Below, in pieces: positions 9,142 to 27,971 of a stretch of DNA of 64,000 bases; the first letter of the stretch is position 1; each line of letters opens with the position of its first letter. The translations under genes were made by a program, and so were the position numbers. Origin of the DNA: Oscillospiraceae bacterium (GTDB lineage: Bacteria; Bacillota; Clostridia; Oscillospirales; Oscillospiraceae); contig JAFRIV010000047.1 in the NCBI GenBank assembly GCA_017432615.1, forward strand, positions 1 through 64,000, given 5' to 3'. The notes beneath the pieces are model-generated. The model saw only the letters and a list, made by a program, of their open reading frames with translations, did no database searches and had not been told where the DNA came from.

Positions 9142-9185
9142 TTCTTCATGTTTTTTGAATATTATCAGACGAAGGAGAACGGAAA

Positions 9186-9383: not shown

Positions 9384-9392
9384 AGGAAAATC

Positions 9393-9420: not shown

Positions 9421-9452
9421 ACCATGGAAATCACGATCCTGTCTTTTGCGGC

Positions 9453-9485
9453 AGACCGGCAACTGTCAAATGCCGGTCTTTTTTT
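9453..9485 (+). terminator. Second T-tailed hairpin overlapping the anti-sigma gene end
   Basis: AGACCGGCA and TGCCGGTCT form a 9-base-pair stem followed by a run of seven T on the plus strand. It backs up the preceding terminator and overlaps the 3' end of the convergent anti-sigma gene. Confidence 0.6.
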
Positions 9486-10206
9486 CGTTCTTTGCAAAAA
9501 AAACCTCATAAGCGATCAGAACAAGAAGCACAAGGATACCCCGCCGAAACAGGACGGCTGTCTTTCCGTAGGAGAAAATGGCATTCATCATATTGGCAAA
9601 CAGGGCTGCATCCACGCCGAGGATCACCATCAGCCGGTTGCGGCTGCCGATCAGCTTTTTGGCCGGCCTGGCTCTGACAAGGAAGGGAAGGGAAACGGCT
9701 GCCAGGCCGAACATGGTTGCGCTGGAAGCGATCCAGAACCAGTTTCCGCCGGTACACAGGCAGATCACAGCAAACAGGAGCAGTACACTTACGCAAAAAG
9801 CACAGACAGTCCAGAACAGCTTATCTTCCGAAACCGTCAGCGGTACGACTGTCAGAGAGGCAGCCACGCAGAGCGAGGCCAAAACAATATAAAACCAGCC
9901 GGGGATAGTACCGAAAACAAAGTAGATATAGAGACAAATCAGAAGCGGAACCAGCACAGAACCGGAAAGGGCGGAGCCCACAGCGGCGGTGCGGCGCCGG
10001 AACTGCCGAATACCGTATTGGATCACCTCATTTTTCTCGTTTTTGAGGTCGTTTTCTATTTCCGTCTGTCGCAGAGACTGGAGCATTTCCCGACATCCCG
10101 GGCAATTTGGCAGGTGATCCTCCACCAGCTCACGGCTTCCTTCGCTGCAGGCATCGTCCGCATACAGCGGCAGCAGATCCCGGATCACATCACATTCGTT
10201 TTTCAT
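9466..10206 (-). CDS. Putative zinc-finger anti-sigma factor
   Basis: A 246-residue protein with an N-terminal zf-HC2-type anti-sigma domain: DLLPLYADDACSEGS followed by HLPNCPGC (HxxxCxxC, about residues 31-38). Four or five membrane helices fill the remainder. Such proteins hold an ECF sigma factor at the membrane until an envelope signal releases it. The gene overlaps the end of the sigma gene by 4 bases, the usual sigma/anti-sigma arrangement. Confidence 0.85.
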   Translation of the reverse strand: MKNECDVIRDLLPLYADDACSEGSRELVEDHLPNCPGCREMLQSLRQTEIENDLKNEKNEVIQYGIRQFRRRTAAVGSALSGSVLVPLLICLYIYFVFGTIPGWFYIVLASLCVAASLTVVPLTVSEDKLFWTVCAFCVSVLLLFAVICLCTGGNWFWIASSATMFGLAAVSLPFLVRARPAKKLIGSRNRLMVILGVDAALFANMMNAIFSYGKTAVLFRRGILVLLVLIAYEVFFAKNEKKTGI

Positions 10207-10688
10207 GCTTCACGCATCCTTTCCTGTAATTTCAGCCTGGCGCGGTGATAAGTGACCCGTGCCCAGTTCTCGGTTTTGCCAAAAATCGTCCCGATCTCCC
10301 GAAAACTCAGTTCACCGAAGACTCGGAGTTCAAACGCTTCCCGGTAAGGCTCTTCCAGCGCGTGCAGCGCCAGATGGATCCGAAACGAGGTGTCTCTGTC
10401 TACGGCCCTTTGCTCAAGGTCCTTTCCGTCTTCCGGCAGATCTTCCGACAGCGGTTCGACGGTGCGTTCGCGGCGTTTTCCGTCGAGGAAGAAGTTCTTT
10501 GCAATGGCACACAGCCAGGTGCCTTCATCCGATTCTCCCCGGAAGTCCTTCTGCTTTGAAAAAGCACGGAAGAAAGTCTCCTGCATGATCTCCTCGGCCT
10601 CTTCCCGGTTTCCCGTCAGAGTCATAGCATAGGAAAATACACGCATATAATAGGTCTCATACAGTTTTTCACGGCTGTCTCGGGCCAC
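10203..10688 (-). CDS. ECF-type RNA polymerase sigma factor
   Basis: A 161-residue group 4 sigma factor. Region 2 is YYMRVFSYAMTLTGNREEAEEIMQETFF, shown here as its parts YAMTLTGN and EEIMQETFFRAF; region 4 ends with FGELSFREIGTIFGKTE. It redirects RNA polymerase to a regulon that probably includes its own promoter. GTG at 10686-10688 is chosen because GAGGAGGTGAAAAT directly precedes it and homology starts there. Its anti-sigma partner follows with a 4-base overlap. Confidence 0.92.
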   Translation of the reverse strand: MARDSREKLYETYYMRVFSYAMTLTGNREEAEEIMQETFFRAFSKQKDFRGESDEGTWLCAIAKNFFLDGKRRERTVEPLSEDLPEDGKDLEQRAVDRDTSFRIHLALHALEEPYREAFELRVFGELSFREIGTIFGKTENWARVTYHRARLKLQERMREA

Positions 10689-10722
10689 ATTTTCACCTCC
10701 TCGCCTTGTCAGACTCACTCTT

Positions 10723-10750
10723 TAGACGGAGCAAAGGCTGTTTCGTTACA
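10723..10750 (-). promoter_or_regulatory. ECF-type autoregulatory promoter
   Basis: On the minus strand TGTAAC (10745-10750), 16 bases, then CGTCTA (10723-10728). This matches the -35/-10 pattern recognised by ECF sigma factors of the Bacillus SigX/SigM/SigW type and sits 35 bases before the sigma gene. Confidence 0.7.
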
Positions 10751-11164
10751 GAAAAACAGTAAAAATTTTTTTATTTAAAATTATAATGATTCTATCATAG
10801 CGGAGCTCTCTGCACAACCGCCGTTTATGGCATCCCGATTGATAGGATAAGGAAAGAGAAAGGGGTGCTCTCTGCAGCACCCCAAGATCCTCTTGTCATC
10901 TTGTTATCAAACCAATATTTAAAGCGGTTCTTTACGGTAAATCTTTCATTTCTGCCCGATTTATCATTTTTCATTGTATTATTCCTTTTTTATGATATTT
11001 TGAGAGAAAAGGTTAAGGAAATTGACGCAGGAATGACATATCGTTTTTTACATCTTATTATTCATCTTATCACTTTTTCCTGATCCGCACAATGATATCG
11101 TGAGACAAAAAAGCATTATTGCTCACGACGCACAATGTATTTTGCGGATAACAATATATGTATT

Positions 11165-11224
11165 CGGTGCGAACCCCTCTCAAAACAACCGGCTAAACAG
11201 GCAGTTTTACCCGCGTTCGCACCG
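11165..11224 (+). repeat. Leader inverted repeat (10-bp arms)
   Basis: CGGTGCGAAC (11165-11174) and its exact complement GTTCGCACCG (11215-11224) enclose 40 bases. GTGCGAAC...GTTCGCAC palindromes of this size are known, from memory, in leaders of some clostridial CRISPR arrays; here it ends 138 bases before the first repeat. Confidence 0.6.
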
Positions 11225-11283
11225 GGCGTATTACAAAAAAGGACTCTTGTTAAGTCCATTTTTTATACAGTTTGATGAAACGA

Positions 11284-11312
11284 TTGCTTTTTTTCGTTAC
11301 CTCTGTTATGAT
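11284..11312 (+). promoter_or_regulatory. Predicted CRISPR array promoter
   Basis: TTGCTT (11284-11289), 17 bases, TATGAT (11307-11312), 50 bases before the first repeat and pointing into the array. Confidence 0.45.
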
Positions 11313-11362
11313 AATGCACACAGGGAAAAGGCTGCAGGGTATTGCTTTTGTTGCTTTTTGCC

Positions 11363-11599
11363 GAAACAATCTACACCCCGCAAGGGGACGAAAACATGGT
11401 ATCCATAATGGTCTGGAGCCTTTGAGCAAGAAACAATCTACACCCCGCAAGGGGACGAAAACGTCATGTAAACATCACGCATTTTCAAACCGTAAGAAAC
11501 AATCTACCCCCCGCAAGGGGACGAAAACGTGAAGAATGTGCTCAGGAAGCCATGCCGTCAATAAAACAAACAACCTGAACCACGCAAGGAACAAAAAAC
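11363..11599 (+). CRISPR. Orphan CRISPR mini-array, type III-like repeat
   Basis: Three near-identical 33-base repeats lie at 11363-11395, 11430-11462 and 11496-11528 (the third has one change, A to C). A degenerate fourth copy is at 11568-11599, matching at 23 of 32 positions. Spacers are 34, 33 and 39 bases. The repeat contains the stem CCCCGCAAGGGG and ends in ACGAAAAC, closely resembling the ACGAGAAC handle of type III-A repeats (Staphylococcus epidermidis). That implies plus-strand transcription, and the decayed repeat at the far end agrees. No cas gene is in the window, so effector and adaptation proteins must be elsewhere or lost. Confidence 0.88.
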
Positions 11600-11708
11600 A
11601 CAAGGGTCAGTTATTTATTACAGATCCTTGTGTTCATTGTGTTGGCAGCGAATGTTATTATAAGCAGATGAATCAACAATCAATTTTTCTAAAAAAGGAG
11701 TATTCAAA

Positions 11709-12383
11709 ATGAAAAAATCATCAATTGTATATATTGTTCTAACTGTGCTGGTAATATGTACAGCTGTAGGTATAGCGGCTTACAGTATTTATATTAATCC
11801 GGGAGCATTCGTCAGGCCAAACCAAAACCTGCCGGAATCTGTCCTGATAAATGAAACACCCAAACCATTTCCATTAGCTTTTGAGGAGATTATTACTAGT
11901 GAAACAATTCGGGACAGCTTTCAGGACGTTGAAAGGTTAGTAACAGAAGAATATTACTTCACGGAAGTTATGGACTACTCAACAATGAAAGATTGGTGGA
12001 TTATTGCGGGCTTAACAAAGTCAAACCTTCTATGCAGCTACGATGGTACTATTACAGCGGGAGTGGACCTGTCAGAAACAGAGATTGAAATTGATAATGA
12101 AAAGAAAAATATTAAAGCGATACTCCCGGCAGCTGAAATTTTGAGTATAAACATTGATCATTCCAGCTTGAAGGTTTATCAGGAAAAGGAGGGTTTTTGG
12201 AATAAGTTTACTGCCGATAATTACAATGATGCCTTACAGCGACTGGAAGAAACAATTGAACAGAAAGCGATCGACAGAGGCATCCTAACAAGGGCAGAAG
12301 AGAATGCCTCGAAAATTATGAAACAGTTTATAATAAGTGTGATCGGAACAACAAAATACACTGTTGAGATTGTGAGGAAATGA
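11709..12383 (+). CDS. DUF4230 family membrane-anchored protein
   Basis: A 224-residue protein with one N-terminal helix (about 7-28) and an outward DUF4230-like domain. Characteristic stretches are YYFTEVMDYS, LLCSYDGTITAGVDLSE, IKAILPAAEILSINID and the C-terminal GILTRAEENA. DUF4230 proteins are widespread and of unknown role; the fold is reminiscent of membrane-scaffold-type domains. AAAAAAGGAG precedes the ATG. The next gene starts 1 base after its stop. Base composition is clearly more AT-rich than the flanking housekeeping genes. Confidence 0.8.
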   Translation: MKKSSIVYIVLTVLVICTAVGIAAYSIYINPGAFVRPNQNLPESVLINETPKPFPLAFEEIITSETIRDSFQDVERLVTEEYYFTEVMDYSTMKDWWIIAGLTKSNLLCSYDGTITAGVDLSETEIEIDNEKKNIKAILPAAEILSINIDHSSLKVYQEKEGFWNKFTADNYNDALQRLEETIEQKAIDRGILTRAEENASKIMKQFIISVIGTTKYTVEIVRK

Positions 12384-12384
12384 G

Positions 12385-13215
12385 ATGGAAAAAGAAGAAC
12401 TCTCAAAAAGGATGTTTATAGCCGCTATTCTTGTATTGTTTGCTGTAGTTTCCTTTTTTATTCTGGGAAGACTTTTTTCGAATCCGCAAACCTATTCGGC
12501 CCAAATCGATTCATTAGATAATAAGGTTGTGACCACTTTAAGGCTGACCGCTTCAGCAACTGCGGCTTCTGCAGGTATTACGGCTTTGCCGGATGATATT
12601 GGCACACCGATTGCTCAAAGACTGGCAGAGTTCTCTGAGTATGGATTTATTATCGTCTGTATTCTTTATGCAGAAAAATATCTGATGTCTATGCTGGGTG
12701 AAGCGGTATTCTGTGTTATCCTTCCTTTAACCATCGTACTATATGCATTCACACTTTTTTTCACAACAAAAAAGATGCCGGAATTGTTAGTAAAAATAGC
12801 ATTGGTGAGCGTTGCTTTATGGATTGCTATACCGTTTAGTATTCATGTCTCAGATAAAATATATGAAACCTATACTGTTTCCATAAACCAGACGATATCA
12901 GATGCCGAGCAGTTAACAAGCGATACCTCTCAGCTTCAGGCTGCAGGGAATGATAAGAACCTTCTACAGCGGATACTGACTGGGTTGAAAACGACTGTTA
13001 CGGGGCTTGCAGACAGAGGCGCGACTCTTGTAAACAGATTTATCGAGAGCATGGCAATTTTGGTCGTTATTTCCTGTATCATTCCTTTGCTGGTCCTATT
13101 TTTTGCACTTTGGCTGATCAAACAGATCCTGGGCTTTGATATTCCCATACCGAAGCCACAGCATGGAAGAAAATTGCAAAACCAACTGAGTGAATCTATC
13201 CATGAATCTGACTAA
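12385..13215 (+). CDS. Multi-spanning membrane protein, unknown
   Basis: A 276-residue protein not assigned to a family. Four hydrophobic segments are visible (about residues 10-30, 88-135 as two, and 218-240). The loop between the third and fourth has TVSINQTISDAEQL and a stretch likely to be helical. The C-terminus is short and basic. It follows the DUF4230 gene by 1 base and is probably a partner of it in one complex or process. It ends 22 bases before the interrupted zinc-ribbon gene. Confidence 0.7.
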   Translation: MEKEELSKRMFIAAILVLFAVVSFFILGRLFSNPQTYSAQIDSLDNKVVTTLRLTASATAASAGITALPDDIGTPIAQRLAEFSEYGFIIVCILYAEKYLMSMLGEAVFCVILPLTIVLYAFTLFFTTKKMPELLVKIALVSVALWIAIPFSIHVSDKIYETYTVSINQTISDAEQLTSDTSQLQAAGNDKNLLQRILTGLKTTVTGLADRGATLVNRFIESMAILVVISCIIPLLVLFFALWLIKQILGFDIPIPKPQHGRKLQNQLSESIHESD

Positions 13216-13420
13216 ATCTGAAGAAAGTTAGCAAGACATGAGTAATTATTTTTGTCCTCATTGCGGAGCTGATCTTGATGACCAGGACGGTTTCAATCCA
13301 AATACTGGTTACTGGACGTGTAAAGAGTGTGGACAGTTCTTGACAGATCCGGAGATCGATGTGGATAAATCCAGCCGTTTTGACGGAGTCGGCTGGTTCT
13401 GCGATAATTGCGGAGCATTT

Positions 13421-14563
13421 TTAAGGCAACACCGCGCAAAATAGAGTAGTGCGGTAGAGCACACAATATGGTAAAATAGCAGTATGAATAAGCAGATAAC
13501 GCTGTCCACGTTCAACGATGAGTTGGCGAAAGTTCGGACGAAGAAAAAAGAATTTCTGGTGCAGATGGATCGCATCATCCCGTGGGACGAGTGGAAGGCA
13601 CTCATTCAGCCGTACTACTACAAAGGAGAGCGCGGCAATAAGCCCTATGACTTGGAACTGATGCTTCGGTTATTTATACTGCAGAACCTCTACAACCTTT
13701 CCGATGAGGGGACAGTTGCGGAGGTCATAGACAGTCGCGCGTTTTCAGAGTTTTGCGGGGTGGATTCCAGTAACCAAGTACCAAATGGGGATACCTTGGG
13801 ACGGTTTCGGAATCTGTTGATGAAGCACGGACTTCAGCAACAGTTGTTTGCACAAGTGGTCAGCATGCTGATGGAGCGTGGATTGATTCTGAAAAAGGGA
13901 ACGATCGTAGACTCTACAATCATCTCAGCGCCATCTTCCACGAAGAACGAAGAAAAGAAACGCGATCCCGATGCCCATCAGGTGAAGAAGGGCAATACTT
14001 GGCATTTTGGGTATAAGGCACATATTGGCGTGGACAGAGACAGTGGCATAGTTCACACGGTCAAGGCCACAGCAGCCAATGTGCATGACGTGACTATGAC
14101 ATCTGAACTCATGCACGGAGAGGAAGAAACCCTCAACGGAGACAGCGGATACCTGGGCGTTGAGAAGCGTGAGGATGCCAAAGTACGCAACAAATCCGGC
14201 AAGAAGATCCGATATGAGATCAACCGTCGCCCCAGCCAAATGCGCAAGCTCAGCAAAAGCGGTCAGTACAAGGCCAAGAAGCGGGAACACGCGAAGTCTT
14301 CTGTACGGGCCAAGGTAGAACATGTTTTCGGCGTGGTAAAGGGTCTGCTTAAATTCAAGAAGACGCGATACCGAGGGCTTCAAAAACAAGAAGCAAAATT
14401 CAACATCATGTTTGCGCTGGCAAATCTGATTCTGGCTGACAGGCCCTGCCTGGCAGCTTGATTCAGTACACCCCCGCAAGAAAAATGTAGGGGCAACATC
14501 TGCAGTTGGCTATGTTACAGAGTACTCATATCTCATTTTGCTGATTGTGCGGTGTTGCCTTAA
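13421..14563 (+). mobile_element. IS5-family insertion sequence with TTAA target duplication
   Basis: The element spans 13425-14559 (1,135 bp). Terminal inverted repeats begin GGCAACACCGC at the left and, reading inward from the right, GGCAACACCGC again (about 15 of 16 bases match). TTAA is present on both sides (13421-13424 and 14560-14563), fitting the YTAR-type target of IS5-group elements. The single transposase gene and clean ends suggest a recent, complete insertion. Confidence 0.92.
13484..14461 (+). CDS. IS5-family DDE transposase
   Basis: A 325-residue transposase. The N-terminal domain (about 15-110) has PYYYKGERGNKPYDLELMLR and the SRAFSEFCG stretch of IS5 relatives, given here within the allowed length. 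The catalytic DDE residues lie in TIVDSTIISAP, NGDSGYLGVEK and VEHVFGVVK. The preserved reading frame and intact motifs suggest activity. It excises and inserts the element whose terminal repeats flank it. No clear ribosome binding site precedes the ATG, typical of poorly translated transposases. Confidence 0.93.
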   Translation: MNKQITLSTFNDELAKVRTKKKEFLVQMDRIIPWDEWKALIQPYYYKGERGNKPYDLELMLRLFILQNLYNLSDEGTVAEVIDSRAFSEFCGVDSSNQVPNGDTLGRFRNLLMKHGLQQQLFAQVVSMLMERGLILKKGTIVDSTIISAPSSTKNEEKKRDPDAHQVKKGNTWHFGYKAHIGVDRDSGIVHTVKATAANVHDVTMTSELMHGEEETLNGDSGYLGVEKREDAKVRNKSGKKIRYEINRRPSQMRKLSKSGQYKAKKREHAKSSVRAKVEHVFGVVKGLLKFKKTRYRGLQKQEAKFNIMFALANLILADRPCLAA

Positions 14564-15714
14564 ATAAACAGACTGGCTTTTCGGATTGGTACAATACTTG
14601 GACTTGTACTCAATGTGGGCATGTCAATTCTATTTCTGAGGAAGAAATATATGAGTCAGAAGAAGCATACCAATCCAGTAAAAAGAAATCAGATTCTGAG
14701 AATGATGATGAATATGGTTATGATGAGGAATGGAAATATGATACTCCACGGAGATGCGAAAACTGTGATCGGCTCTTAAACAAGCAGGCTGGTTTTGAGG
14801 AATGGATGAATGCCTTCACATGCGAAAAATGTGGCTGGTATAATGAGTGGACGACAGATGATGAAGATGATATAGATGAAGACGACAGTGACGAAGATGA
14901 TTATGAATATGACAGCATAACTGAAGAAACAAATTATTATTCTCCGGAAACTGAGCAAAGATTACGAACAGAAGAACGATTAAGGGAATTAACGCTGGCG
15001 CAGAAAGAAAGACGCAGAGCGAAAAAAGACGAACATCGAGTAATAAAAGCTCAGAAAAAGGAAGAAAATCGAGTAAAAAAAGCACAAAAAAAGGAACAAT
15101 GGAAAAGATTTTTGAGAAGAATCCTGAGGAAAAAACAAACAGTAGGATTGTCTTCTGATCAATGTAAAAATATGCAATACGGAGATGTTATTACATTTTT
15201 AAAATCAAGGGAGTTTTATAATTTCAGGGTTTCAGCAAGTGAGACTCTTTCGGGAAAAAATGCTTCACAAGAAGGGGTCGTGGCACGAATCTCTATAGAT
15301 AATCAAGATTTATTTGAAGAATTAACAGAATTCCCGTATGATGCATTTATTAATATAGCATTCTATTCAATGAAGAAGGCTTTCCCGCCACTAACTTCCA
15401 GAAATGCGAAGAGAGCAGACTTAAAGGATATTATATTGAGTTTCAGAAATGCCGGATTTGAAAACCTGTATCAGCAAGCAATACCAGACATAACAAAAAG
15501 ATGGCTTGCAAAAGATAATTATGTTGAAGCAGTTATGATTAATGGAAGAACAGATTACAAGAAAAATGAGCGGTTCAGAATCGATACTAAAGTTGTAATT
15601 ATCTATCATACATTCAAAGACAAATAGTTTTCCAATCCGTTGTCATTTGGCAAAATGGAGTAATATTTGATTTCCTTGAAAAAAGGAATGCCGATTATAG
15701 TCTCCAAGAATAAG

Positions 15715-15757
15715 AAGAACGCAACCAAAAGTGTTTAAAAGCGTTCTTTCTTATTAT
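15715..15757 (+). terminator. Terminator after the split zinc-ribbon gene
   Basis: AAGAACGC (15715-15722) pairs with GCGTTCTT (15741-15748), followed by TCTTATTATTT. Confidence 0.55.
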
Positions 15758-19878: not shown

Positions 19879-21243
19879 ATGAAAATGTATCAGACGACCC
19901 AGCCCATCGAAAAATATCTCAATATTCCGTTGGAGTGCTCCTGCGGGAGGACGCATTTTGCACCTATCAAAGCCATCCGTGTCAGCAGCGGAGCGATTTC
20001 GCTTCTGCCGGATTATATGAAGCAATACGGCTATTCTCACCCGTATCTGCTCTCAGACAGGATCACTTATGATATCGCCGGGTACAGGTGTGAAGCAATT
20101 TTGCAGCAGGCCGGGTTTTCCCCCTTTACGAGGATCCTGACCCATATGGCGTATGACGAGGCCACTCTGGGGGAGATCGTTCTCAACAAACCGGATGACT
20201 GTGACGTGATGATCGGCATCGGCACCGGACAGATCACCGACATGCTGCGCTTTGCCAGCTTCAAGCTGGGCCTGCCCTGTTTTACTGTGCCTACCGCTGC
20301 CCCTATGGACGGGTTTTCTGCATCCGTCGGTATCATGAATGTGGATCATCTGAAAGCGACCATGCCCGCTCATGCTTCGGAAGTGATCCTGGGTGATACG
20401 GATGTGCTGAAGGGTGCGCCGATGCGTATGACCCTTGCCGGCTTCGGCGACCTCGTGGGGAAGTATAATGCCCTCAATGACTGGCGCCTCGGCAGGATCG
20501 TCAATGGCGAGCACTACTGTGAAAAAATAGCCACCATGGTGGAGGACTATGTCACCGGGGTGACGGAAGACGCCGACAGGATCCGGGATAAGGATCCGGA
20601 GACCATCGGGGGTATTCTCAATGCGCTGCTTCTGACGGGAGCCACCGTCAGTCTGTATGGTACTTCCCGTGCCATCTCGGGGGCAGAGCACCACATGTCC
20701 CACTACTGGGAAGTGCTGGGGGATGAAAGGGGAAAGCCCTTTGCCATGCACGGAGAACAGGTGGCCGTGGCCACGGTGCTGGCCCTTTCCGTTGTGGAAA
20801 AGCTGAAAGACAGAGCCATCGATTTTAACCGTGCCCGTGCTGCTGCACAGAGGTATGACAGCGATACGTGGGCTGCCCAGATCCGGTTGGCTTACGGGGA
20901 GGCGGCAGAGGCTATCCTTGCGCTGGAGGAGAAAGCGCAGAAAAATGCGCCGGAAGGCCGCCTGAAGCGGATCGATGCGATGGAAGAAAAATGGCCGGAG
21001 ATCCGTTCCCTGCTGGAGACGGTGATCCCTGCCGGACAACTGAGAGAACTTCTGCGATCCCTGGGCTGCCCGTGTGACCCGAGGGACATCGGCGTTACCC
21101 CGGAGATCCTGAAAGACACCTTCCTCTACTGCAAGGAAACACGCACGATCTTTACGGTGTATCAGATGGCCTGGGATCTGGATCTGATGGACGAGATCTC
21201 CGATGAGATCATCCGCTTTTTAAAGCAGGAGAACAGAATATGA
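19879..21243 (+). CDS. sn-glycerol-1-phosphate dehydrogenase family protein (paralogue 2)
   Basis: A 454-residue EgsA/AraM-type dehydrogenase. Family motifs are MIGIGTGQITDMLRF (nucleotide), TAAPMDGFSASVG, and metal-ligand regions AGFGDLVGKYNALNDW, SGAEHHMSHYWE and MHGEQVAVAT. The N-terminal motif CSCGRTH is at residues 20-26. It is about 40 residues longer than the other two paralogues, mainly in the C-terminal helical half and tail. ATG 19879 is preferred to an upstream GTG (19861) because GTGAGGAG spaces correctly. It heads the operon; the HAD gene overlaps its end by 4 bases. The true substrate may be a glycerol phosphate or related ketose phosphate. Confidence 0.87.
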   Translation: MKMYQTTQPIEKYLNIPLECSCGRTHFAPIKAIRVSSGAISLLPDYMKQYGYSHPYLLSDRITYDIAGYRCEAILQQAGFSPFTRILTHMAYDEATLGEIVLNKPDDCDVMIGIGTGQITDMLRFASFKLGLPCFTVPTAAPMDGFSASVGIMNVDHLKATMPAHASEVILGDTDVLKGAPMRMTLAGFGDLVGKYNALNDWRLGRIVNGEHYCEKIATMVEDYVTGVTEDADRIRDKDPETIGGILNALLLTGATVSLYGTSRAISGAEHHMSHYWEVLGDERGKPFAMHGEQVAVATVLALSVVEKLKDRAIDFNRARAAAQRYDSDTWAAQIRLAYGEAAEAILALEEKAQKNAPEGRLKRIDAMEEKWPEIRSLLETVIPAGQLRELLRSLGCPCDPRDIGVTPEILKDTFLYCKETRTIFTVYQMAWDLDLMDEISDEIIRFLKQENRI

Positions 21244-21968
21244 GCATCCGCCTGATCGCTTTTGACCTGGACGGTACGCTGACGCAGCATAAAACACCGC
21301 TTTCCGCCAAAAATCGCGCTGTGCTGGATGCCCTGAAAAACCGCTGCCGCCTGCTGATGGTAGGCGCAGGGCAGTGTATGAGAATCTTCCGGCAGATGGA
21401 GGAATACCCCATTGATATTATCGGGAACTACGGTATGCAGTTTTATCGCTATGATGAGACGGAAAAATCCCTCTGCCCTGTTTATGACGAGCACGCTCCC
21501 TGTGACAGGGGGCGTGTGGAAGCGCGCATTACGGCATTGCGCAGGCAATTCGGGTATGAATCCTACACCGGTGACAACGTGGAATTCCATGCCTCCGGGT
21601 GTGTGACGTTTCCGCTGCTTGGCACGAAAGCCGCTCAGGAAGACAAACTTGCCTTTGACCCGGACCATGCCAAACGGCTTCCGATGTTTCCTGCCGTCCG
21701 GGATGCTTTTCCGGATTATACGGTGTTTATCGGAGGCAGTTCCTCTTTTGACTTTGCCCCTGCCCCCTATAACAAATACTACGCGCTGGACCGTTACTGT
21801 AAAGAAAACGGTTTTCTGCACCGGGAAGTGCTCTACTGCGGAGACGATTACGGAGAAGGCGGCAACGATGAAGCGGTCTACCGCTCGGATTTCCCCTTCC
21901 TCTGTGTAAAGGACTATACCCGTGTGGGTGAACTTATAAATGATTATCTGGAGGGAACGATATGCTGA
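21240..21968 (+). CDS. HAD superfamily (IIB-type) phosphatase
   Basis: A 242-residue HAD hydrolase of the Cof/phosphomannomutase-like IIB group. Motif I is AFDLDGTLT (residues 7-15), with nucleophile Asp9 and acid/base Asp11; motif IV is LYCGDDYGEGGND near residue 200; the cap domain lies between. Such enzymes dephosphorylate sugar phosphates. Start and end overlap both flanking dehydrogenase genes (4 and 7 bases). The grouping recalls araL-araM of the Bacillus arabinose operon, where a HAD phosphatase also sits next to a G1P dehydrogenase. Confidence 0.87.
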   Translation: MSIRLIAFDLDGTLTQHKTPLSAKNRAVLDALKNRCRLLMVGAGQCMRIFRQMEEYPIDIIGNYGMQFYRYDETEKSLCPVYDEHAPCDRGRVEARITALRRQFGYESYTGDNVEFHASGCVTFPLLGTKAAQEDKLAFDPDHAKRLPMFPAVRDAFPDYTVFIGGSSSFDFAPAPYNKYYALDRYCKENGFLHREVLYCGDDYGEGGNDEAVYRSDFPFLCVKDYTRVGELINDYLEGTIC

Positions 21969-23215
21969 TTGACAGTCTGCAATACAATGGCGCGTGCTCC
22001 TGCGGCCGGGAGCACACGATGGTGACCCGCGTTGCGGTGATCGAATCCGGGTGCCTGTTCCGCTTTGAAAAATGGATGGAAGAGTATGGCATTACAGGGA
22101 AACGCTGTGCCCTGTATGGAGAGCATTCCTACGCGGCTACAGTTGACCGTCATCCCGAAGCGGAGCAGGAAATCATTCTGGATCCAAACGGCCTGCATGC
22201 CGATGAGCGTTCTACCGCCCTGGTGCTGGAGAAGCTTGAGGATGATGTGGAAGTGCTGATTGCCGTCGGCAGCGGAACCATCCACGATATTGCCCGGTTC
22301 TGCGCCCATGAAAGAGGGATCCGGTTTGTCTCGTGCCCGACGGCTGCCAGCGTTGACGGATTTTGCAGTACGGTCGCTGCCATGACCTGGTACGGCTATA
22401 AAAAAACGCTGCCCGCCGTAGCGCCGGAGCTGGTGCTGGCGGATACGGAGGTGATCCGCCATGCGCCGATGGAACTGGTACGCAGCGGCGTGGGGGATAT
22501 CATGGCAAAGTACACCGCCCGTGCCGACTGGGAGATTGCCCACCTGCTGACAGGGGAGTACCTCTGCCCGCGCATTCGTGACATTATGGCGGAGGCGGCT
22601 GACACGGTGATGGCCAGCATCCCCGGCATCCTGTCCGGCAGCGAAGAAGCATATGCTCATGTGACCTATGCCCTGATCATGAGCGGCATCGCCATGCAGA
22701 TGATGGGCAATTCCCGCCCGGCATCCGGTGCGGAACATCATATTTCCCACATGATCGAGATGCAGCCGGCAGCTTTCCGGGTGCGGTTTCCTGCCCTGCA
22801 CGGTGAAAAAACAGGGGTGGGGTCGATCCTCGCGGCGAGGGAATATGAACGCCTTGCCCGGATCGAGGACATTTCCCCTGTTCTGACGGACTATGCTCCC
22901 GTGCCGGACGAGACATTGAGAGCCTTCTTCGGGGAGGACCTTTTCAGGGCTATTTCGGAGGAAAACCGAAAGGATTGTCTTGCTGCAGTTTCCAAAGAGC
23001 GCCTGGCAAAATGCTGGCCTGAGATCCGGCAGATCATTGACGCCATGCCGAAGGCGGAAGCCTTCGACAGCACCCTCCGACAGCTCGGCGCGAAGCATAC
23101 ACTGGAGGAAATCGGCGTGGCATCGGAAGATTTGTCAATATTGCTAAAATATTCTCCCCTGGTTAGAAATCGTTTGACGTTAATGCGAATTAGGCGTATG
23201 ATAAAAGGAGATTAA
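21962..23215 (+). CDS. sn-glycerol-1-phosphate dehydrogenase family protein (paralogue 3)
   Basis: A 417-residue EgsA/AraM-type dehydrogenase, closer in length and N-terminus to paralogue 1 than to paralogue 2. CSCGREH is at residues 12-18. Other motifs are IAVGSGTIHDIARFCA, TAASVDGFCSTVA, SGVGDIMAKYTARADW, SGAEHHISHMIE and LHGEKTGVG. Overlap with the HAD gene and a 34-base gap to the ABC ATPase show it is mid-operon. Two different dehydrogenases in one operon suggest two substrates or enantiomers, or a heteromer. Confidence 0.87.
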   Translation: MLIDSLQYNGACSCGREHTMVTRVAVIESGCLFRFEKWMEEYGITGKRCALYGEHSYAATVDRHPEAEQEIILDPNGLHADERSTALVLEKLEDDVEVLIAVGSGTIHDIARFCAHERGIRFVSCPTAASVDGFCSTVAAMTWYGYKKTLPAVAPELVLADTEVIRHAPMELVRSGVGDIMAKYTARADWEIAHLLTGEYLCPRIRDIMAEAADTVMASIPGILSGSEEAYAHVTYALIMSGIAMQMMGNSRPASGAEHHISHMIEMQPAAFRVRFPALHGEKTGVGSILAAREYERLARIEDISPVLTDYAPVPDETLRAFFGEDLFRAISEENRKDCLAAVSKERLAKCWPEIRQIIDAMPKAEAFDSTLRQLGAKHTLEEIGVASEDLSILLKYSPLVRNRLTLMRIRRMIKGD

Positions 23216-23249
23216 AATCTATATTACCCATAAAAAGGAGTGATAGCGG

Positions 23250-24362
23250 ATGAGTGTTGATATCAGGATCAGCCACGCGTTAAAAAAGTACGGGGAGAAT
23301 ATCATCATCCCGGACCTGAGCGTGAATATCAATCCTGGTGAGTTTTTCACACTTCTCGGCCCGTCAGGATGCGGGAAAACCACCCTGCTGCGGATGATTG
23401 CGGGCTTTAACAGCATCGAAGGCGGGGATTTTTACTTCGGGGATAAGCGCATCAACGATCTGGATCCTTCCAAACGCAACATCGGTATGGTCTTCCAGAA
23501 TTACGCCATCTTTCCGCACTACACTGTGCGCAAGAATGTGGAATTCGGCCTGAAGAACCGCCATCTGCCCAAGGAGCAGATCAAAGAAAGCACCGATAAA
23601 TTCCTGAAGCTGATGCAGATCGACAACCTGGCCGACAGGCTGCCGGACCGCCTTTCCGGCGGGCAGCAGCAGCGTGTTGCACTGGCCAGAGCCCTTTGTA
23701 TCAGCCCGGATGTGCTTTTGATGGATGAGCCGCTCTCCAACCTGGATGCCAAGCTCCGCGTGGAGATGCGCACCGTCATCAAAAACATCCAGCATGACGT
23801 GGGCATCACCTGTGTTTACGTGACGCATGACCAGGAAGAAGCTATGGCAGTATCCGACAGGATCGCCGTTATGAATGCCGGCGTGATCCAGCATATCGGC
23901 AACCCGAAAAGCATCTACCAGCGCCCGGCAAATGTATTTGTTGCCACTTTTATCGGCAGAACGAATATGCTTAAAGGCACTCTGTCGGTGGACGGCGGCA
24001 AAGCAAAGCTCAGAATCGGCGAATATGAGGCGGAGATGCATACGATTGCTCCGGAATATCTGCATACGCAGGAGGTCCAGGTCAGTGTTCGGCCGGAAGA
24101 GCTGCTTCTCAACCGTGACGCTGATGCTTACGGTATTAAAGGCACGGTTCAGGATGCTGTCTTCCTCGGGCTCAATACTCATTACTTCGTAAAGCTGGAC
24201 AGCGGTGAGGATGTGGAGATCATCCAGGAATCCTCCATCGAAGAGACGCTCGGCAGGGGAGCCAGAATCTCTCTGACGATCAACACCGAGAAGGTCAACC
24301 TCTTCCTGGCAGACGGGTCCAGAAATATCCTCACAGGGGTCCGGAACGACCTGGAAGCATGA
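23250..24362 (+). CDS. ABC importer ATPase, Fbp/Pot/PhnT type
   Basis: A 370-residue ATPase of the iron/polyamine/phosphonate/sugar-phosphate importer class. Walker A GPSGCGKTT (37-45), Q-loop MVFQNYAIFPH, signature LSGGQQQRVALARAL (about 136-150), Walker B VLLMDEPLSNLDA, and a C-terminal TOBE domain (about 290-355, VSVRPEELLL). AAAAAGGAG lies upstream. It energises the fused permease encoded next (10-base gap). Confidence 0.93.
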   Translation: MSVDIRISHALKKYGENIIIPDLSVNINPGEFFTLLGPSGCGKTTLLRMIAGFNSIEGGDFYFGDKRINDLDPSKRNIGMVFQNYAIFPHYTVRKNVEFGLKNRHLPKEQIKESTDKFLKLMQIDNLADRLPDRLSGGQQQRVALARALCISPDVLLMDEPLSNLDAKLRVEMRTVIKNIQHDVGITCVYVTHDQEEAMAVSDRIAVMNAGVIQHIGNPKSIYQRPANVFVATFIGRTNMLKGTLSVDGGKAKLRIGEYEAEMHTIAPEYLHTQEVQVSVRPEELLLNRDADAYGIKGTVQDAVFLGLNTHYFVKLDSGEDVEIIQESSIEETLGRGARISLTINTEKVNLFLADGSRNILTGVRNDLEA

Positions 24363-24372
24363 GGGACTCGTC

Positions 24373-26028
24373 ATGCAGAAAAATAAGAAGTTTGAGGTAT
24401 GGACGGTCCTGTCCATTGTGCTTTTCCTGCTTTTCCTGCTGATCCTTGTCTATCCGATGTTCGGCATCCTCAAGCAGTCCCTCTACGATAAGGAAGGGGC
24501 GCTGACGTTTGCCAACTTTGCCAAGTTCTTCTCCAAAAAGTATTATACCAATACCATTCTGAACAGTTTTAAGGTCACGATTGCCGTAACGCTGGTTTCT
24601 CTGCTGATCGGCATTCCGCTGTCCTATTTCTACAGCTTTTATCGGCTGAAAGGCGCCAAGATCATCTTCGTGGTGAGCATTCTCTGCTGTATGTCGGCAC
24701 CATTCCTCGGCGCCCTTTCCTGGATCATGCTGATGGGCAGGAACGGCATTGTTACCAAGTTCTTCCTGAATGTGTTCCATATCCGGCTCGGCAGTATCTA
24801 TGGATTTAAAGGGATCCTGCTGGTGCAGGCGCTGAAGTATTTTCCTCTGGTGTTCATCTATATGAACGGGGCTTTCCGCAATATCGACAACACCCTGATT
24901 GAAGCTTCCGCCAACATGGGATGTACGGGCATCCGGCGCTTTTTCAAGATCATTCTGCAGTTGTCCATGCCCACCGTTCTGGCTGCTTCCCTGATGGTAT
25001 TCATGCGTGCCTTTGCCGACTTCGGTACCCCGATGATCATCGGCGAAGGATACCGGACTTTCCCGGTAGAGATCTATTCCCAGTATCTCGGTGAAAACGG
25101 GAGGGACTACGGTTTTGCCGCCGCCATCTCGGTCATCGCCATCATCATTACAGCACTGGTGTTCTTCCTTCAGCAGTGGGCCACGGGAAAATTCCGCTTT
25201 TCCATCAATGCCCTTCACCCGGTGGAAAAGAAGCCTGCAAAAGGCATCGGCGGTTTTCTGATGCATCTCTATGCCTACCTGCTGATCTTTATCGGCTTTG
25301 CCCCGAACCTTTACATTGTATATCTTTCCTTTGTCAACAGCGACGGTGCTGTATTTAAAAACGGGTATTCCTTCAACAACTACAAACTGGCGGCCAAGAA
25401 GCTTCTGGTTCGGTCCATCAACAACACGCTGATCCAGGGATTCGGCGCCCTGCTGATCATCATAGTCTTTGCGGTCATCGTTGCCTATCTCGTGGTGCGC
25501 CGCTCCAACCCGATCAATCACGCAATCGATACGATGGCCATGCTGCCGTATATCATGCCGGGAGCAGTCGTCGGTATTGCACTGGTCATGGCATTCGGCT
25601 CCAAGCCCTTTGCCCTCACCGGCACGATGACGATTATGATCTTGAACCTGGTGGTTCGAAGAATGCCCTATACCATACGATCGGCCACGGCCTGTCTGAT
25701 GCAGATTCACCCGAGTATTGAAGAGGCAGCCATCAGTTTAGGGGCGTCCAAGCTGAAAACGTTTTCCAGGATCACGGTTCCGATGATGTCCAGCGGCATC
25801 ATTTCCGGAGCTATTCTGAGCTGGGTCTCCATTGTGACGGAACTTTCCGGTTCCATTATTCTGTACAACAATAAGACCATCACTCTTACTATGAGCACCT
25901 ACGTGCAGATCAACCGCGGCAATTACGGCACAGCCTGCGCCTTTGCCGCAATCCTGACGGTCGTTACGATCCTCTCGCTGCTTGTCTATATCAAAGTCAG
26001 CGGGAATGAAGACGATATCCGTCTCTGA
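24373..26028 (+). CDS. ABC importer permease, two fused halves (FbpB/AfuB type)
   Basis: A 551-residue membrane protein with about 12 helices and two copies of the binding-protein-dependent permease domain. Each has an EAA loop contacting the ATPase: EASANMGCTGIRRFF (about 177) and EEAAISLGASKLKTFSRI (about 454). One fused chain replacing a permease dimer is standard for FbpB/AfuB/ThiP-type systems. Substrate is inferred only from the neighbours. Confidence 0.92.
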   Translation: MQKNKKFEVWTVLSIVLFLLFLLILVYPMFGILKQSLYDKEGALTFANFAKFFSKKYYTNTILNSFKVTIAVTLVSLLIGIPLSYFYSFYRLKGAKIIFVVSILCCMSAPFLGALSWIMLMGRNGIVTKFFLNVFHIRLGSIYGFKGILLVQALKYFPLVFIYMNGAFRNIDNTLIEASANMGCTGIRRFFKIILQLSMPTVLAASLMVFMRAFADFGTPMIIGEGYRTFPVEIYSQYLGENGRDYGFAAAISVIAIIITALVFFLQQWATGKFRFSINALHPVEKKPAKGIGGFLMHLYAYLLIFIGFAPNLYIVYLSFVNSDGAVFKNGYSFNNYKLAAKKLLVRSINNTLIQGFGALLIIIVFAVIVAYLVVRRSNPINHAIDTMAMLPYIMPGAVVGIALVMAFGSKPFALTGTMTIMILNLVVRRMPYTIRSATACLMQIHPSIEEAAISLGASKLKTFSRITVPMMSSGIISGAILSWVSIVTELSGSIILYNNKTITLTMSTYVQINRGNYGTACAFAAILTVVTILSLLVYIKVSGNEDDIRL

Positions 26029-26101
26029 TTTTCTCTTTGTCCAGTAGGCGTCCTTCATGCGCCACGGAATAAAAAATTTTTCAAGAAAAGGAGAATTAAT
26101 C

Positions 26102-27133
26102 ATGAAGAAAATTCTCGCGATGCTGCTGGCACTCAGCATGGTATTTGCCATCGTAGCGATTTCTGCTTCTGCAGAAGAAGACATCGGCGACACCCTCGTC
26201 CTTTATTCCACCATGACGGAAAAAGACCTGGATGCACTGATCAGCGGCTTCAATGAAGTCTACCCCGACTGTGAAATCGAAGTAGTTTCCGGAACCATCG
26301 GGGAAACAACTTCCCGTATCGCTGCGGAAGCAGACAACCCGCAGGGCGACGTGACCTGGGGCGGCCTCGCAGATTCTGACGGCATGCAGTATGCCGATCT
26401 CTTTGAAGAGTGGGTTTCCGATGAATCCGCCAATGCCATTGAAGGCTACTCCACCCCCAACGGCATCTACTCCATGGACCACCTGTCCACCGTCGTATTT
26501 GCCATCAACACCGACCTGGAGAAGGAACTCAGCCTTGATATCCGCAGCTATGCTGACCTCCTGGATCCGAAACTCGAAGGCAAGATCATCTTCTCCAACC
26601 CGAACAGCTCTTCTGCAGCATGGAACAACCTCTGCAACATTATGTCTGTTTTCGGCAATGACAGCGAAGAAGCATGGGACTATATCGGAAAGCTTATGAA
26701 GAACCTCGTCATCTCTGACTCTTCCTCTAACTGCTTCAAACTGGTTGAGCAGGGCGAATATGTTGTGGGTCTGACCTATGAAGACGGCGCTATCAAACTC
26801 ATTCAGCAGGGTGCAGATGACCACTTCACCATGCGTTATCCTGCCGACGGGGCTTCCGCTTCCGCATTCGGCATGGCTGTGATCAAAAACTGCAAGCACC
26901 CTGCAGCTGCGAAAGCTCTGGTCAACTGGGTCTGCTCCGCAGAAGGCTGCTCCTATATCGCTCAGTATCTGAAGACGCTGCGTATGACCAACAAGGATAC
27001 CGTTTACGGCGAGAGCCTGCTTCCCGCTACGGAAGACATCAAGTGGGTCTTCCGCGATGTTCCGTACCTCACCGAGCATAAGCCGGCCATTCTGGAGCAC
27101 TGGAATGACCTCCTCCTTGAGGTTCAGGGCTGA
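26102..27133 (+). CDS. Extracellular solute-binding protein, AfuA/FbpA type
   Basis: A 343-residue periplasmic-binding-protein-like receptor. Signal peptide residues 1-23 end in ISASA, without a lipobox cysteine. The mature part opens with DTLVLYSTMTEKDLDAL and has VTWGGLADSDGMQ, IIFSNPNSSSAAWN and GLTYEDGAIKL, typical of the Fe3+/sugar-phosphate/phosphonate binding class 1 superfamily. No tyrosine pair for iron is obvious, which favours an organic phosphate ligand. The ATG at 26102 is chosen for its AAAAGGAG and the signal peptide. A stem-loop follows the gene. Confidence 0.9.
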   Translation: MKKILAMLLALSMVFAIVAISASAEEDIGDTLVLYSTMTEKDLDALISGFNEVYPDCEIEVVSGTIGETTSRIAAEADNPQGDVTWGGLADSDGMQYADLFEEWVSDESANAIEGYSTPNGIYSMDHLSTVVFAINTDLEKELSLDIRSYADLLDPKLEGKIIFSNPNSSSAAWNNLCNIMSVFGNDSEEAWDYIGKLMKNLVISDSSSNCFKLVEQGEYVVGLTYEDGAIKLIQQGADDHFTMRYPADGASASAFGMAVIKNCKHPAAAKALVNWVCSAEGCSYIAQYLKTLRMTNKDTVYGESLLPATEDIKWVFRDVPYLTEHKPAILEHWNDLLLEVQG

Positions 27134-27152
27134 TTCTTTCGGAAAAAAGCGG

Positions 27153-27181
27153 AATAGGGCCGCGTAAGCGGCCCTATTCTT
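27153..27181 (+). terminator. Intercistronic stem-loop after the binding-protein gene
   Basis: AATAGGGCCGC and GCGGCCCTATT pair over 11 bases around GTAA, followed by CTTTG. The short T-run suggests partial termination or 3'-end protection between the binding protein and the aldolase gene. Confidence 0.7.
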
Positions 27182-27281
27182 TGACACAAGCGGGGTTCGG
27201 GTGTTTTCGCCTCTGCCTGAGGCTGTTTGCCGGCAGACACAGGCAAAAGCCCCTGAAAAAGAAAAAATGAGGAGTAATGTT

Positions 27282-27971
27282 ATGTTAACTGAATTGAAAG
27301 AACAGGTCCTGCAGGCAAATCTCCTGCTGCCGAAGCATGATCTTGTCACCTTCACCTGGGGAAACGTCTCCGGGATCGACCGCGCTTCCGGCCTGTTTGT
27401 CATCAAGCCCTCCGGCGTTTCCTATGAAGGCATGTCGGTGGAAGACATGGTTGTCTGTGATCTTGACGGAAAGGTCGTAGAAGGGAAGTGGAAGCCTTCC
27501 AGCGATACGCCGACGCATCTGGAACTCTATAAAGCGTTTCCGGAGATCGGCGGCATCGTGCATACCCACTCCCGCTGGGCAACCTCTTTTGCCCAGGCAG
27601 GGATGAGCATTCCGGCACTTGGCACTACACAGGCGGATTATTTCTACGGAGCCATCCCCTGTACCCGCCCGATGACGGAGGAAGAGATCCGCGGAGAGTA
27701 TGAAAAGGAGACCGGCAAAGTTATCATCGAGACCTTCCGCGGGAAAAATGCTGCAGATCTTCCGGGGGTGCTGGTTTACAGCCACGGGCCGTTTGCCTGG
27801 GGCACCGATGCCCTCAATGCCGTGCACAACGCGGTAGTGATGGAAGAAGTTGCTTTTATGGATTACCATGCCCTCACGCTCAATCCGTCTCTTACAACAA
27901 TGCAGAGCGCTCTGCTGGACAAGCATTATCTGCGTAAGCACGGCAAAAATGCTTACTACGGCCAGGGCTGA
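27282..27971 (+). CDS. araD: Class II aldolase/epimerase, L-ribulose-5-phosphate 4-epimerase type
   Basis: A 229-residue AraD/FucA-family protein. Hallmarks are [37 protein letters not shown] (catalytic Asp), and zinc-binding [11 protein letters not shown] plus a later YSHGPFAWG histidine. Length and motifs fit L-ribulose-5-phosphate 4-epimerase, but related aldolases cleave ketose phosphates to dihydroxyacetone phosphate. ATG 27282 is supported by TGAGGAG and homology onset. As last gene of the phosphorylated-polyol operon it may process its product. Confidence 0.88.

What the first reader, a model, noticed from the sequence alone, without database searches (positions are those of the whole stretch)
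19879..27971. Candidate uptake-and-catabolism operon for a phosphorylated polyol or sugar, built on two glycerol-1-phosphate dehydrogenase paralogues
Two EgsA/AraM-type dehydrogenases flank a HAD phosphatase with overlapping frames, then come an Fbp/Afu-type ABC importer and an AraD-type aldolase. AfuA-class receptors bind sugar phosphates, and Bacillus araD-araL-araM is a partial parallel, but neither has this combination. One hypothesis is salvage of sn-glycerol-1-phosphate, for example from archaeal lipids in a gut or rumen, oxidised to dihydroxyacetone phosphate. Alternatives are pentose phosphates or 2-aminoethylphosphonate.
Basis: partly seen in the sequence, partly recalled or inferred. 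Interest (0 to 1): 0.72.

Follow-up and report, generated by a model that had tools for sequence, protein, structure and literature searches.

The report
Phosphorylated-compound uptake operon with two dehydrogenases
A gut bacterium's gene cluster appears to import a small phosphorylated sugar or sugar alcohol and process it with a phosphate-handling enzyme and two relatives of an enzyme best known from archaeal lipid making; the exact compound is still unknown.

Summary
AraD probably does not belong: a hairpin follows the binding-protein gene in 14 of 14 loci examined, AraD follows it in 2 of 12 assessable genus loci, and in four relatives AraD sits with Mrp, importer elsewhere or absent.

The binding protein is nearest to organophosphate receptors (AfuA, HptA, P5PA), but keeps 1 of 5 tested AfuA residues, so its ligand probably differs. 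HAD is the constant neighbour (13 of 13 genus loci). DH2 is in the cluster in 8 of 13. DH1 is adjacent in 7 of 13, yet all 13 importer-bearing genomes have a DH1 orthologue, against 3 of the other 89. HAD's nearest solved relatives are sugar-phosphate mutases, so 'phosphatase' is unproven.

Best reading: uptake of a phosphorylated sugar or polyol, with DH1/DH2 oxidising polyol phosphates. sn-glycerol-1-phosphate is possible (paralogues sit with glycerol kinase; lipoteichoic acid is a plausible source), but AraM genes outside the genus lie near arabinose genes in 17 of 40 loci (controls 0 of 20). Substrate unresolved. New variant of a known kind.

The parts
19879..21243 (+). DH1, AraM/G1PDH-family (Fe-ADH_2) metal-dependent dehydrogenase, 454 aa
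   Evidence: Pfam PF13685 83.6 bits; best PDB match 9h4x 'glycerol-1-phosphate dehydrogenase' 157 bits; D/H/H positions conserved
21240..21968 (+). HAD-IIB enzyme, PMM/alpha-PGM-like (sugar-phosphate phosphatase or phosphomutase), 242 aa; constant neighbour of the importer
   Evidence: Pfam PMM 36 bits over cut-off 22.4; PDB best 4bnd alpha-phosphoglucomutase 53.7 bits; 13 of 13 genus loci (window)
21962..23215 (+). DH2, AraM/G1PDH-family dehydrogenase, 417 aa
   Evidence: Pfam PF13685 96.4 bits; 9h4x 177 bits
23250..24362 (+). ABC importer ATPase with TOBE domain, 370 aa
24373..26028 (+). ABC importer permease, two fused transmembrane modules, 551 aa
   Evidence: two BPD_transp_1 stretches
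26102..27133 (+). Secreted substrate-binding protein, 343 aa, AfuA/HptA/P5PA-like
27151..27180 (+). Hairpin (13-pair stem, loop of 4) after the binding-protein gene, probable end of the transcription unit; the T-run on the + strand is short
   Evidence: -27.1 kcal/mol, z -4.28; hairpin in 14 of 14 loci
27282..27971 (+). AraD (L-ribulose-5-phosphate 4-epimerase family): neighbour, judged outside the operon
   Evidence: TIGR00760 407.4 bits over 389.1; AraD-Mrp without the importer at that place in L132-L135
6972..8213 (-). DH3, third AraM/G1PDH paralogue; related, not in the operon

Best explanation
DH1-HAD-DH2-ATPase-permease-binding protein is one transcription unit (inferred from overlaps, spacing and the hairpin). 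A secreted receptor of the AfuA/HptA/P5PA class captures a small phosphorylated sugar or polyol and the ABC importer carries it in intact (inferred from family). Inside, the PMM/alpha-PGM-like HAD enzyme either removes the phosphate or moves it (inferred; its gene is never missing from the locus). DH1 and DH2, metal-dependent AraM/G1PDH-type dehydrogenases, oxidise a polyol phosphate at the carbon next to the phosphate-bearing one, giving dihydroxyacetone phosphate or a longer ketose 1-phosphate for glycolysis (inferred). AraD is a neighbour. The substrate is not fixed by the sequence; glycerol phosphate, pentitol phosphate and hexose/hexitol phosphate all remain open.
For: Receptor profile: AfuA 119.6, HptA 96.4/95.9, P5PA 95.4 bits, against AEP 46.8, other iron-named receptors 44.2 or less, polyamine 25.5. 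Phosphate-side Gly/Ser positions are kept as G67, S170, S171, S208, S209 (against residues in PMC8427247, passages). HAD directly upstream of DH2 or the ATPase in 13 of 13 genus loci, and further upstream in the L020 cluster. DH2 in the same-strand run in 8 of 13 genus loci plus L019 and L020; DH1 adjacent in 7 of 13; a DH1 orthologue (53% or more) somewhere in 13 of 13 importer-bearing genomes against 3 of 89 others. Of 10 more distant permease places I read 6: some sit with GutQ-like and GmhA-like SIS proteins and HAD-IIB (L075, L118, L119) or a PHP protein (L120). DeoR regulators beside L110, L113, L116, L020. Metal-site D/H/H positions invariant in 16 of 16 AraM proteins aligned.
Against: The best receptor hit, 8x1a, is named an iron(III) receptor in its record, and I have no ligand for it. 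Only 1 of 5 AfuA residues tested by mutagenesis is identical (D206 = D228; S37, T150, H205, E229 fall on I66, A172, E227, S254), so a phosphate ligand is itself an inference. The G1PDH equivalog cut-off (413) is missed by DH1 (157) and DH2 (185). No structure could be predicted. DH2 rows with and without the importer interleave in the tree, so DH2 may have been recruited from arabinose loci. In L106, L108, L109, and in L111 as far as its contig shows, HAD and importer stand without a dehydrogenase beside them. The DH1 co-occurrence is not corrected for relatedness, though importer-bearing and other genomes mix in the DH3 part of the tree.
Confidence: 0.6

Rival explanations
1. sn-glycerol-1-phosphate salvage (a special case of the best explanation): the importer takes up sn-G1P, or a glycerophospho compound that yields it, from lipoteichoic acid, phosphatidylglycerol head groups or archaeal lipids; DH1/DH2 oxidise it to dihydroxyacetone phosphate; HAD makes glycerol for glycerol kinase.
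For: Metal-site positions of G1PDH kept. DH3-type paralogue in an operon with glycerol kinase and a NagD-like HAD in three importer-bearing genomes (L145, L222, L223). GlpO-like oxidase, FAD protein and DUF1667 inside the L020 cluster. GDPD beside DH2 and AraD in L070. Own genome has glycerol kinase (74% identity to the L145 protein) and a GlpO-like protein (38% identity to the L020 protein). PcrB in 0 of 102 genus genomes, so G1P is not being made for PcrB lipids. LTA is an sn-G1P polymer (PMC7086022).
Against: GlpK or GlpO genes lie near AraM loci outside the genus in only 2 of 40. DH1 orthologues sit with GutQ-like SIS genes (6 loci) and MtlD-like genes (3 loci) rather than glycerol genes. 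The passages I saw on receptors of this class name no glycerol phosphate ligand.
Confidence: 0.12
2. Pentose/pentitol phosphate pathway: the importer takes up a pentose or pentitol phosphate, DH1/DH2 produce a pentulose phosphate and AraD epimerises L-ribulose 5-phosphate to D-xylulose 5-phosphate.
For: AraA, AraB, AraD or a related FGGY kinase within about 8 kb of AraM-family genes in 17 of 40 regions outside the genus, 0 of 20 control windows. FGGY-AraA-AraD-DH2 run in L136; AraB beside DH2 in L010. Importer-linked and ara-linked DH2 interleave in the tree. Own genome has no AraA_N match yet keeps AraD.
Against: AraD follows the importer in only 2 of 12 assessable genus loci and lies behind a hairpin; in L132-L135 it belongs to an AraD-Mrp block without the importer at that place. 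An araL deletion did not impair L-arabinose growth in B. subtilis (PMC3207120, passages), so HAD/AraM neighbours need not be pathway enzymes. By my own stereochemical reasoning, oxidation next to phosphate with G1PDH handedness would not give L-ribulose 5-phosphate.
Confidence: 0.17
3. Hexose or heptose phosphate import: AfuABC-like uptake of a sugar 1-phosphate or similar, with HAD acting as the phosphomutase; the dehydrogenases are hexitol-phosphate enzymes.
For: AfuA and HptA are among the nearest receptors. HAD is nearest to alpha-phosphoglucomutase and phosphomannomutases and has a conserved GGxSSFD motif (its likeness to PMM's motif is recalled). DH1 orthologues lie beside GutQ-like SIS genes (L072, L073, L075, L119, L123, L125) and MtlD-like genes (L073, L074, L119). 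A DH1-like gene is in a run with FGGY kinase, 1-phosphofructokinase, AKR and GatZ-like genes in L080.
Against: AfuA residues H205 and E229 are replaced; AfuA itself does not bind glucose 1-phosphate (PMC4546632). HAD similarity to mutases is low (53.7 bits). The loci with HAD and importer alone are weaker support than they look, because those four genomes carry DH1 elsewhere; I lowered this reading from 0.28 to 0.25 for that reason.
Confidence: 0.25
4. Iron, polyamine or 2-aminoethylphosphonate importer that merely lies beside unrelated dehydrogenases.
For: The best receptor hit (8x1a) and AfuA itself carry iron-transporter names in their records; the best NCBIfam hits are the PhnS2/T2/U2 models.
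Against: AEP 46.8, other iron-named 44.2 or less, polyamine 25.5 bits against AfuA 119.6; PhnS2/T2/U2 miss their cut-offs (132 vs 393, 360 vs 458, 183 vs 593); constant HAD neighbour and DH1 co-occurrence. AfuA was shown to bind sugar phosphates despite its name (PMC4546632).
Confidence: 0.07

Closest known systems
AfuABC hexose/heptose-phosphate importer (Actinobacillus; PMC4546632)
   Same: Receptor is the nearest homologue with a known ligand that I found (119.6 bits); same receptor class
   Different: 4 of 5 residues tested by mutagenesis are replaced; here coupled to HAD and AraM-type dehydrogenases
HptA (Staphylococcus aureus; PDB 6lkg/6lki, identified from recall)
   Same: Receptor homology about 96 bits
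   Different: No two-component system beside the operon; only the distant L067 shows one, by my reading of its sequences
Bacillus subtilis araABDLMNPQ-abfA operon (PMC3207120, passages)
   Same: An AraM-family dehydrogenase, a HAD enzyme and ABC importer genes in one operon
   Different: HAD is type IIB here, NagD-type there; importer class differs (recalled for NPQ); no AraA_N match in this genome
Glycerol-1-phosphate dehydrogenase (EgsA/AraM; PDB 9h4x, 4rgq)
   Same: Family, metal-site positions; phosphopolyol chemistry expected
   Different: Below the NCBIfam equivalog cut-off; no PcrB match in the genus
alpha-phosphoglucomutase / phosphomannomutase HAD-IIB (PDB 4bnd and others)
   Same: HAD domain, DLDGT motif; Pfam PMM cut-off passed
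   Different: Low similarity; mutase or phosphatase activity not established

Membership tests
AfuA-type organophosphate receptor class | Sequence profile nearest to AfuA/HptA/P5PA rather than to AEP, polyamine or classical Fe3+ receptors | tested here: met
   119.6 / 96.4 / 95.4 bits versus 46.8 (AEP), 44.2 or less (other iron-named), 25.5 (polyamine); best hit 8x1a (121.1) is iron-named, ligand unknown to me
AfuA hexose-phosphate receptor proper | Residues S37, T150, H205, D206, E229 | tested here: not met
   1 of 5 identical by the alignment; residues from PMC4546632
2-aminoethylphosphonate transporter PhnS2/T2/U2 | NCBIfam equivalog cut-offs | tested here: not met
   132.2 vs 392.75, 360.4 vs 457.7, 183.4 vs 593.25
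G1PDH/AraM superfamily | Fe-ADH_2 domain and metal-ligand Asp/His/His | tested here: met
   (which residues are the ligands is recalled; positions read from alignments)
G1PDH equivalog | NF002022 cut-off 413 bits | tested here: not met
   156.6 (DH1), 185.2 (DH2)
G1PDH equivalog | Reduction of DHAP to sn-G1P | not testable with these tools
   needs enzyme assay
B. subtilis-type araDLM arrangement | AraD co-transcribed with AraM and a NagD-type HAD | tested here: not met
   HAD matches IIB models, not NagD/IIA; AraD behind a hairpin and in an AraD-Mrp block in relatives; transcription itself not tested
Classical L-arabinose pathway | AraA in the genome | tested here: not met
   no AraA_N match in own genome (87% complete); 35 of 102 genus genomes have one
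PMM/alpha-PGM HAD-IIB | Pfam PMM cut-off | tested here: met
   36 vs 22.4 bits; mutase activity not testable here

The most novel reading that the evidence does not exclude
A dedicated route for catabolism of the 'archaeal-handed' glycerol phosphate in a bacterium: import of sn-glycerol-1-phosphate (or glycerophospho compounds) released from lipoteichoic acid, phosphatidylglycerol or archaeal lipids by an AfuA-class ABC importer, and oxidation to dihydroxyacetone phosphate by AraM paralogues, in a genus where most genomes have G1PDH-family genes and none searched has PcrB.
Probability: 0.12. Interest if true: 0.72.

Novelty: new variant of a known kind. Interest (0 to 1): 0.42.

Why it matters
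G1PDH is the enzyme behind the lipid divide between archaea and bacteria, yet here 93 of 102 genomes of one genus hold a match to the family (E 1e-30) and 0 of 102 hold PcrB. What these bacteria use it for is open. This operon couples the family to an organophosphate-class importer, and the DH1 type follows the importer from genome to genome (13 of 13 against 3 of 89), which makes the question testable with a ligand screen and enzyme assays. The importer's best curated-model hits are phosphonate-transport models below cut-off and iron-named structures, so such systems are easily misnamed.

Tried and rejected
AraD as an operon member: rejected as more likely wrong than right (hairpin, AraD-Mrp block in relatives, 2 of 12 loci). 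Iron, polyamine or AEP importer: disfavoured on receptor scores and cut-offs, not excluded, since the best hit bears an iron name. G1P for ether lipid by PcrB: disfavoured for the genus (0 of 102; B. subtilis control rings). A wide spread of the importer through the order: only 3 of 394 genomes have a permease match at 1e-60, own genome included (3 candidates per genome were scored there). Afu-type permease or receptor near AraM genes outside the genus: 0 of 40 regions. Literature: the listings (5 of 5 papers; 15 of 22; 3 of 3; 8 of 30; 2 of 2; 5 of 5) show no title or abstract start that describes this gene combination; that is all I saw of most of them, and most subscription papers are not held. 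Papers opened for passages only: PMC4546632, PMC8427247, PMC13400652, PMC7086022, PMC3207120. The designed-protein (sTIM11) hits I take as chance.

Caveats on counts. L007, L008 and L009 appear to be the same loci as L107, L112 and L113 (same lengths, gene sizes and identities) and were counted once. Of 10 more distant permease places I fetched and read 6. For one search the 40 regions cover 41 of the 58 places outside the genus listed (one more, G053, was read apart as L085); several regions come from the same genomes (G667, G845, G510, G780, G881, G556). Of the 20 control windows, 14 come from genomes among the 40 and 6 from other genomes. At that cut-off a hit called AraB is the best of my seeds and may be another FGGY kinase. 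L111's binding protein is cut by the contig end, so its hairpin and downstream genes were not seen; L019's upstream was not seen. Gene calls outside the window come from my own codon-usage script, and several neighbour names (FrlB-like, two-component genes of L067, sulfatases, tagaturonate/altronate genes) are my reading of sequence starts, not family searches.
Full report
OBSERVATION. The window carries, all on the + strand, DH1 (19879-21243), HAD (21240-21968), DH2 (21962-23215), ATPase (23250-24362), fused permease (24373-26028), binding protein (26102-27133) and AraD (27282-27971), followed by Mrp at 28016. The overlaps are 4 and 7 bases. A third AraM-family gene, DH3, lies at 6972-8213 on the other strand.

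WHERE IT OCCURS. The permease clade is narrow. At E 1e-60 it is in 3 of 394 genomes of the order, own genome included (3 candidates scored per genome); at E 1e-150 it is in 19 of 102 genomes of the genus, own included. I fetched all 12 other genus places with 66-94% permease identity (L106-L117) and read them with my own gene caller; two loci of the clade outside the genus sample (L019, L020) came and were read. HAD is directly upstream of DH2 or the ATPase in 13 of 13 genus loci, the window counted, and lies further upstream in the L020 cluster; L019's contig starts too late to tell. DH2 is in the same-strand run in 8 of 13 (and in L019 and L020); in L110 it is next door on the other strand; it is not there in L106, L108, L109 and L111. 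A DH1 orthologue (53% or more) is adjacent in 7 of 13: upstream of HAD in the window and L107, downstream of the binding protein in L113-L117.

CO-OCCURRENCE. All 13 importer-bearing genomes (66-100% permease identity) carry a DH1 orthologue somewhere (53-100% identity; in G024 as two fragments), the four without a dehydrogenase at the locus included; of the other 89 genomes 3 do (G457, G020, G012) (Fisher p 6e-14). The test ignores relatedness. In the DH3 part of the tree, importer-bearing and other genomes are mixed, so one shared ancestor alone does not obviously explain it. DH2, by contrast, is found with the importer in only part of the genomes. So HAD is the constant neighbour and DH1 the constant companion in the genome.

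WHERE IT ENDS. A hairpin follows the binding-protein stop codon (27151-27180; -27.1 kcal/mol, z -4.28). A stem of nine or more pairs lies within 75 bases of that stop in 14 of 14 loci examined; in 9 of them I see a T-run right behind it (L106-L110, L113-L115, L117), while in the window and L112 the T-run is weak, in L116 it is part of the stem, in L019 I see none, and in L020 the stretch ends with the stem. Read-through is possible. In L113-L117, DH1 lies beyond the hairpin. AraD follows the binding protein in the window and L112 only, of 12 loci where the next gene is visible. In L132-L135 (four relatives) an AraD with 87-89% identity sits between a GpsA-like gene and Mrp with no importer at that place (GpsA models 114 bits vs cut-off 257). 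The window's AraD-Mrp pair is best read as that block, with the operon lying upstream. The own genome has one AraD match and no AraA_N match, at 87% completeness.

THE RECEPTOR. A profile of 14 receptors (A4) hits 8x1a (121.1 bits), AfuA (119.6), HptA (96.4 and 95.9; the name is recalled) and P5PA (95.4), then AEP (46.8) and further iron-named receptors (44.2 and lower). 8x1a is named an iron(III) receptor in its record; I do not know its ligand, and AfuA's record is iron-named too although AfuA binds sugar phosphates (PMC4546632, passages). I mapped contact residues given in PMC4546632 and PMC8427247 (passages) by the alignment, by hand. On the phosphate side, G38, S148, G149, S184 and G185 fall on G67, S170, S171, S208 and S209, all Gly or Ser and conserved in the clade. 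On the sugar side, H205, D206 and E229 fall on E227, D228 and S254, and Y103 on H127. Of the five AfuA residues tested by mutagenesis (S37, T150, H205, D206, E229) only D206 is identical. The class is organophosphate-like and the head group is probably not that of AfuA.

THE HAD ENZYME. It passes the Pfam PMM cut-off and its nearest solved relatives are alpha-phosphoglucomutase 4bnd (53.7 bits) and phosphomannomutases. DLDGT and GGxSSFD are invariant in 14 of 14 orthologues aligned. Phosphatase and mutase cannot be told apart from this.

THE DEHYDROGENASES. DH1 and DH2 hit PDB 9h4x (a glycerol-1-phosphate dehydrogenase; I believe B. subtilis AraM, from recall) with 157 and 177 bits. The Asp/His/His positions that I take for the metal site are invariant in 16 of 16 aligned proteins. 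Both miss the G1PDH equivalog cut-off. In a tree of 103 rows, DH2 and DH3 fall together and DH1 in another group; importer-linked and arabinose-linked DH2 rows interleave (quick method, several open forks and long rows). A match to the family at 1e-30 is in 93 of 102 genus genomes, PcrB in 0 of 102.

CONTEXT OF THE FAMILY. In 40 regions with AraM-family genes outside the genus (41 of 58 places), arabinose genes (AraA, AraB, AraD or a related FGGY kinase) lie within about 8 kb in 17, NagD-like HAD genes in 8, GlpK or GlpO in 2, and Afu-type permease or receptor in 0; the 20 control windows have none of these kinds (generic ABC ATPase hits occur in both sets). Glycerol links in the wider set: DH3-GlpK-NagD operons in L145, L222 and L223, GlpO-like (285 bits vs cut-off 460), FAD protein and DUF1667 in the L020 cluster, and GDPD beside DH2 in L070. 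Twelve of 13 importer-bearing genomes have a GlpK at 72-100% identity to the query from G018, own genome included, and 6 of 13 a GlpO-like protein. DH1 links are different: a GutQ-like SIS gene beside DH1 in L072, L073, L075, L119, L123 and L125, and MtlD-like genes near it in L073, L074 and L119. A more distant DH1-like gene in L080 sits with FGGY, 1-phosphofructokinase, AKR and GatZ-like genes, which would fit oxidation of a polyol 1-phosphate to a ketose 1-phosphate (my inference).

MECHANISM. Shown: gene order, families, conservation, co-occurrence, terminator-like hairpin, receptor class. Inferred: uptake of a phosphorylated sugar or polyol, phosphate removal or transfer by HAD, oxidation of polyol phosphate by DH1 and DH2. 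The evidence pulls three ways on the substrate: glycerol phosphate (DH3 links, L020, L070), pentose or pentitol phosphate (17 of 40), hexose or hexitol phosphate (receptor, HAD, DH1 links). I do not think the sequence settles it. sn-G1P remains the most novel option; lipoteichoic acid is an sn-G1P polymer (PMC7086022, abstract and passages), so archaeal lipids are not needed as its source.

NOVELTY. Each part is a known kind. I saw no description of the combination in the listings. It is a new variant of an organophosphate uptake operon, of moderate interest mainly because it ties bacterial G1PDH-family enzymes to uptake.

Noticed in passing
window 6972-8213 (-): Third AraM/G1PDH paralogue (DH3). 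In relatives L145, L222 and L223 a DH3-type gene is in an operon with glycerol kinase and a NagD-like HAD.
   Followed up: partly
window 53008-62191 (+): Separate sugar operon: binding protein, ABC ATPase and permeases (by sequence reading), xylulokinase (TIGR01312 over cut-off), DUF4867 and a protein with an L-fucose isomerase C-terminal domain. It could be the user of AraD in this genome.
   Followed up: no
A3 alignment, N-terminus (e.g. window 21962-23215): An N-terminal CxCGxxH motif is invariant in all 16 AraM-family proteins aligned; its role is unknown to me.
   Followed up: no
L080 4584-10924 (-): DH1-like gene in one strand run with 1-phosphofructokinase, FGGY kinase, aldo-keto reductase and GatZ-like genes, suggesting a polyol 1-phosphate to ketose 1-phosphate route.
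   Followed up: no
L068 (own genome C21) 1995-15750: Three further Fbp/Afu-type importers in a row with a GDPD-domain protein and a HAD gene, followed by what look like tagaturonate/altronate genes.
   Followed up: no
40 AraM regions, L152-L191: Arabinose genes beside AraM-family genes in 17 of 40 regions, several with AraB and/or AraD but no AraA hit (e.g. L163, L181, L184, L189), hinting at an AraM role in a pentitol route.
   Followed up: partly
L071, L072, L078, L123: DH1 or DH1-like genes near sulfatase-like and BadF-type kinase genes, perhaps mucin or sulfated-sugar use (names by sequence reading; one kinase scanned).
   Followed up: no
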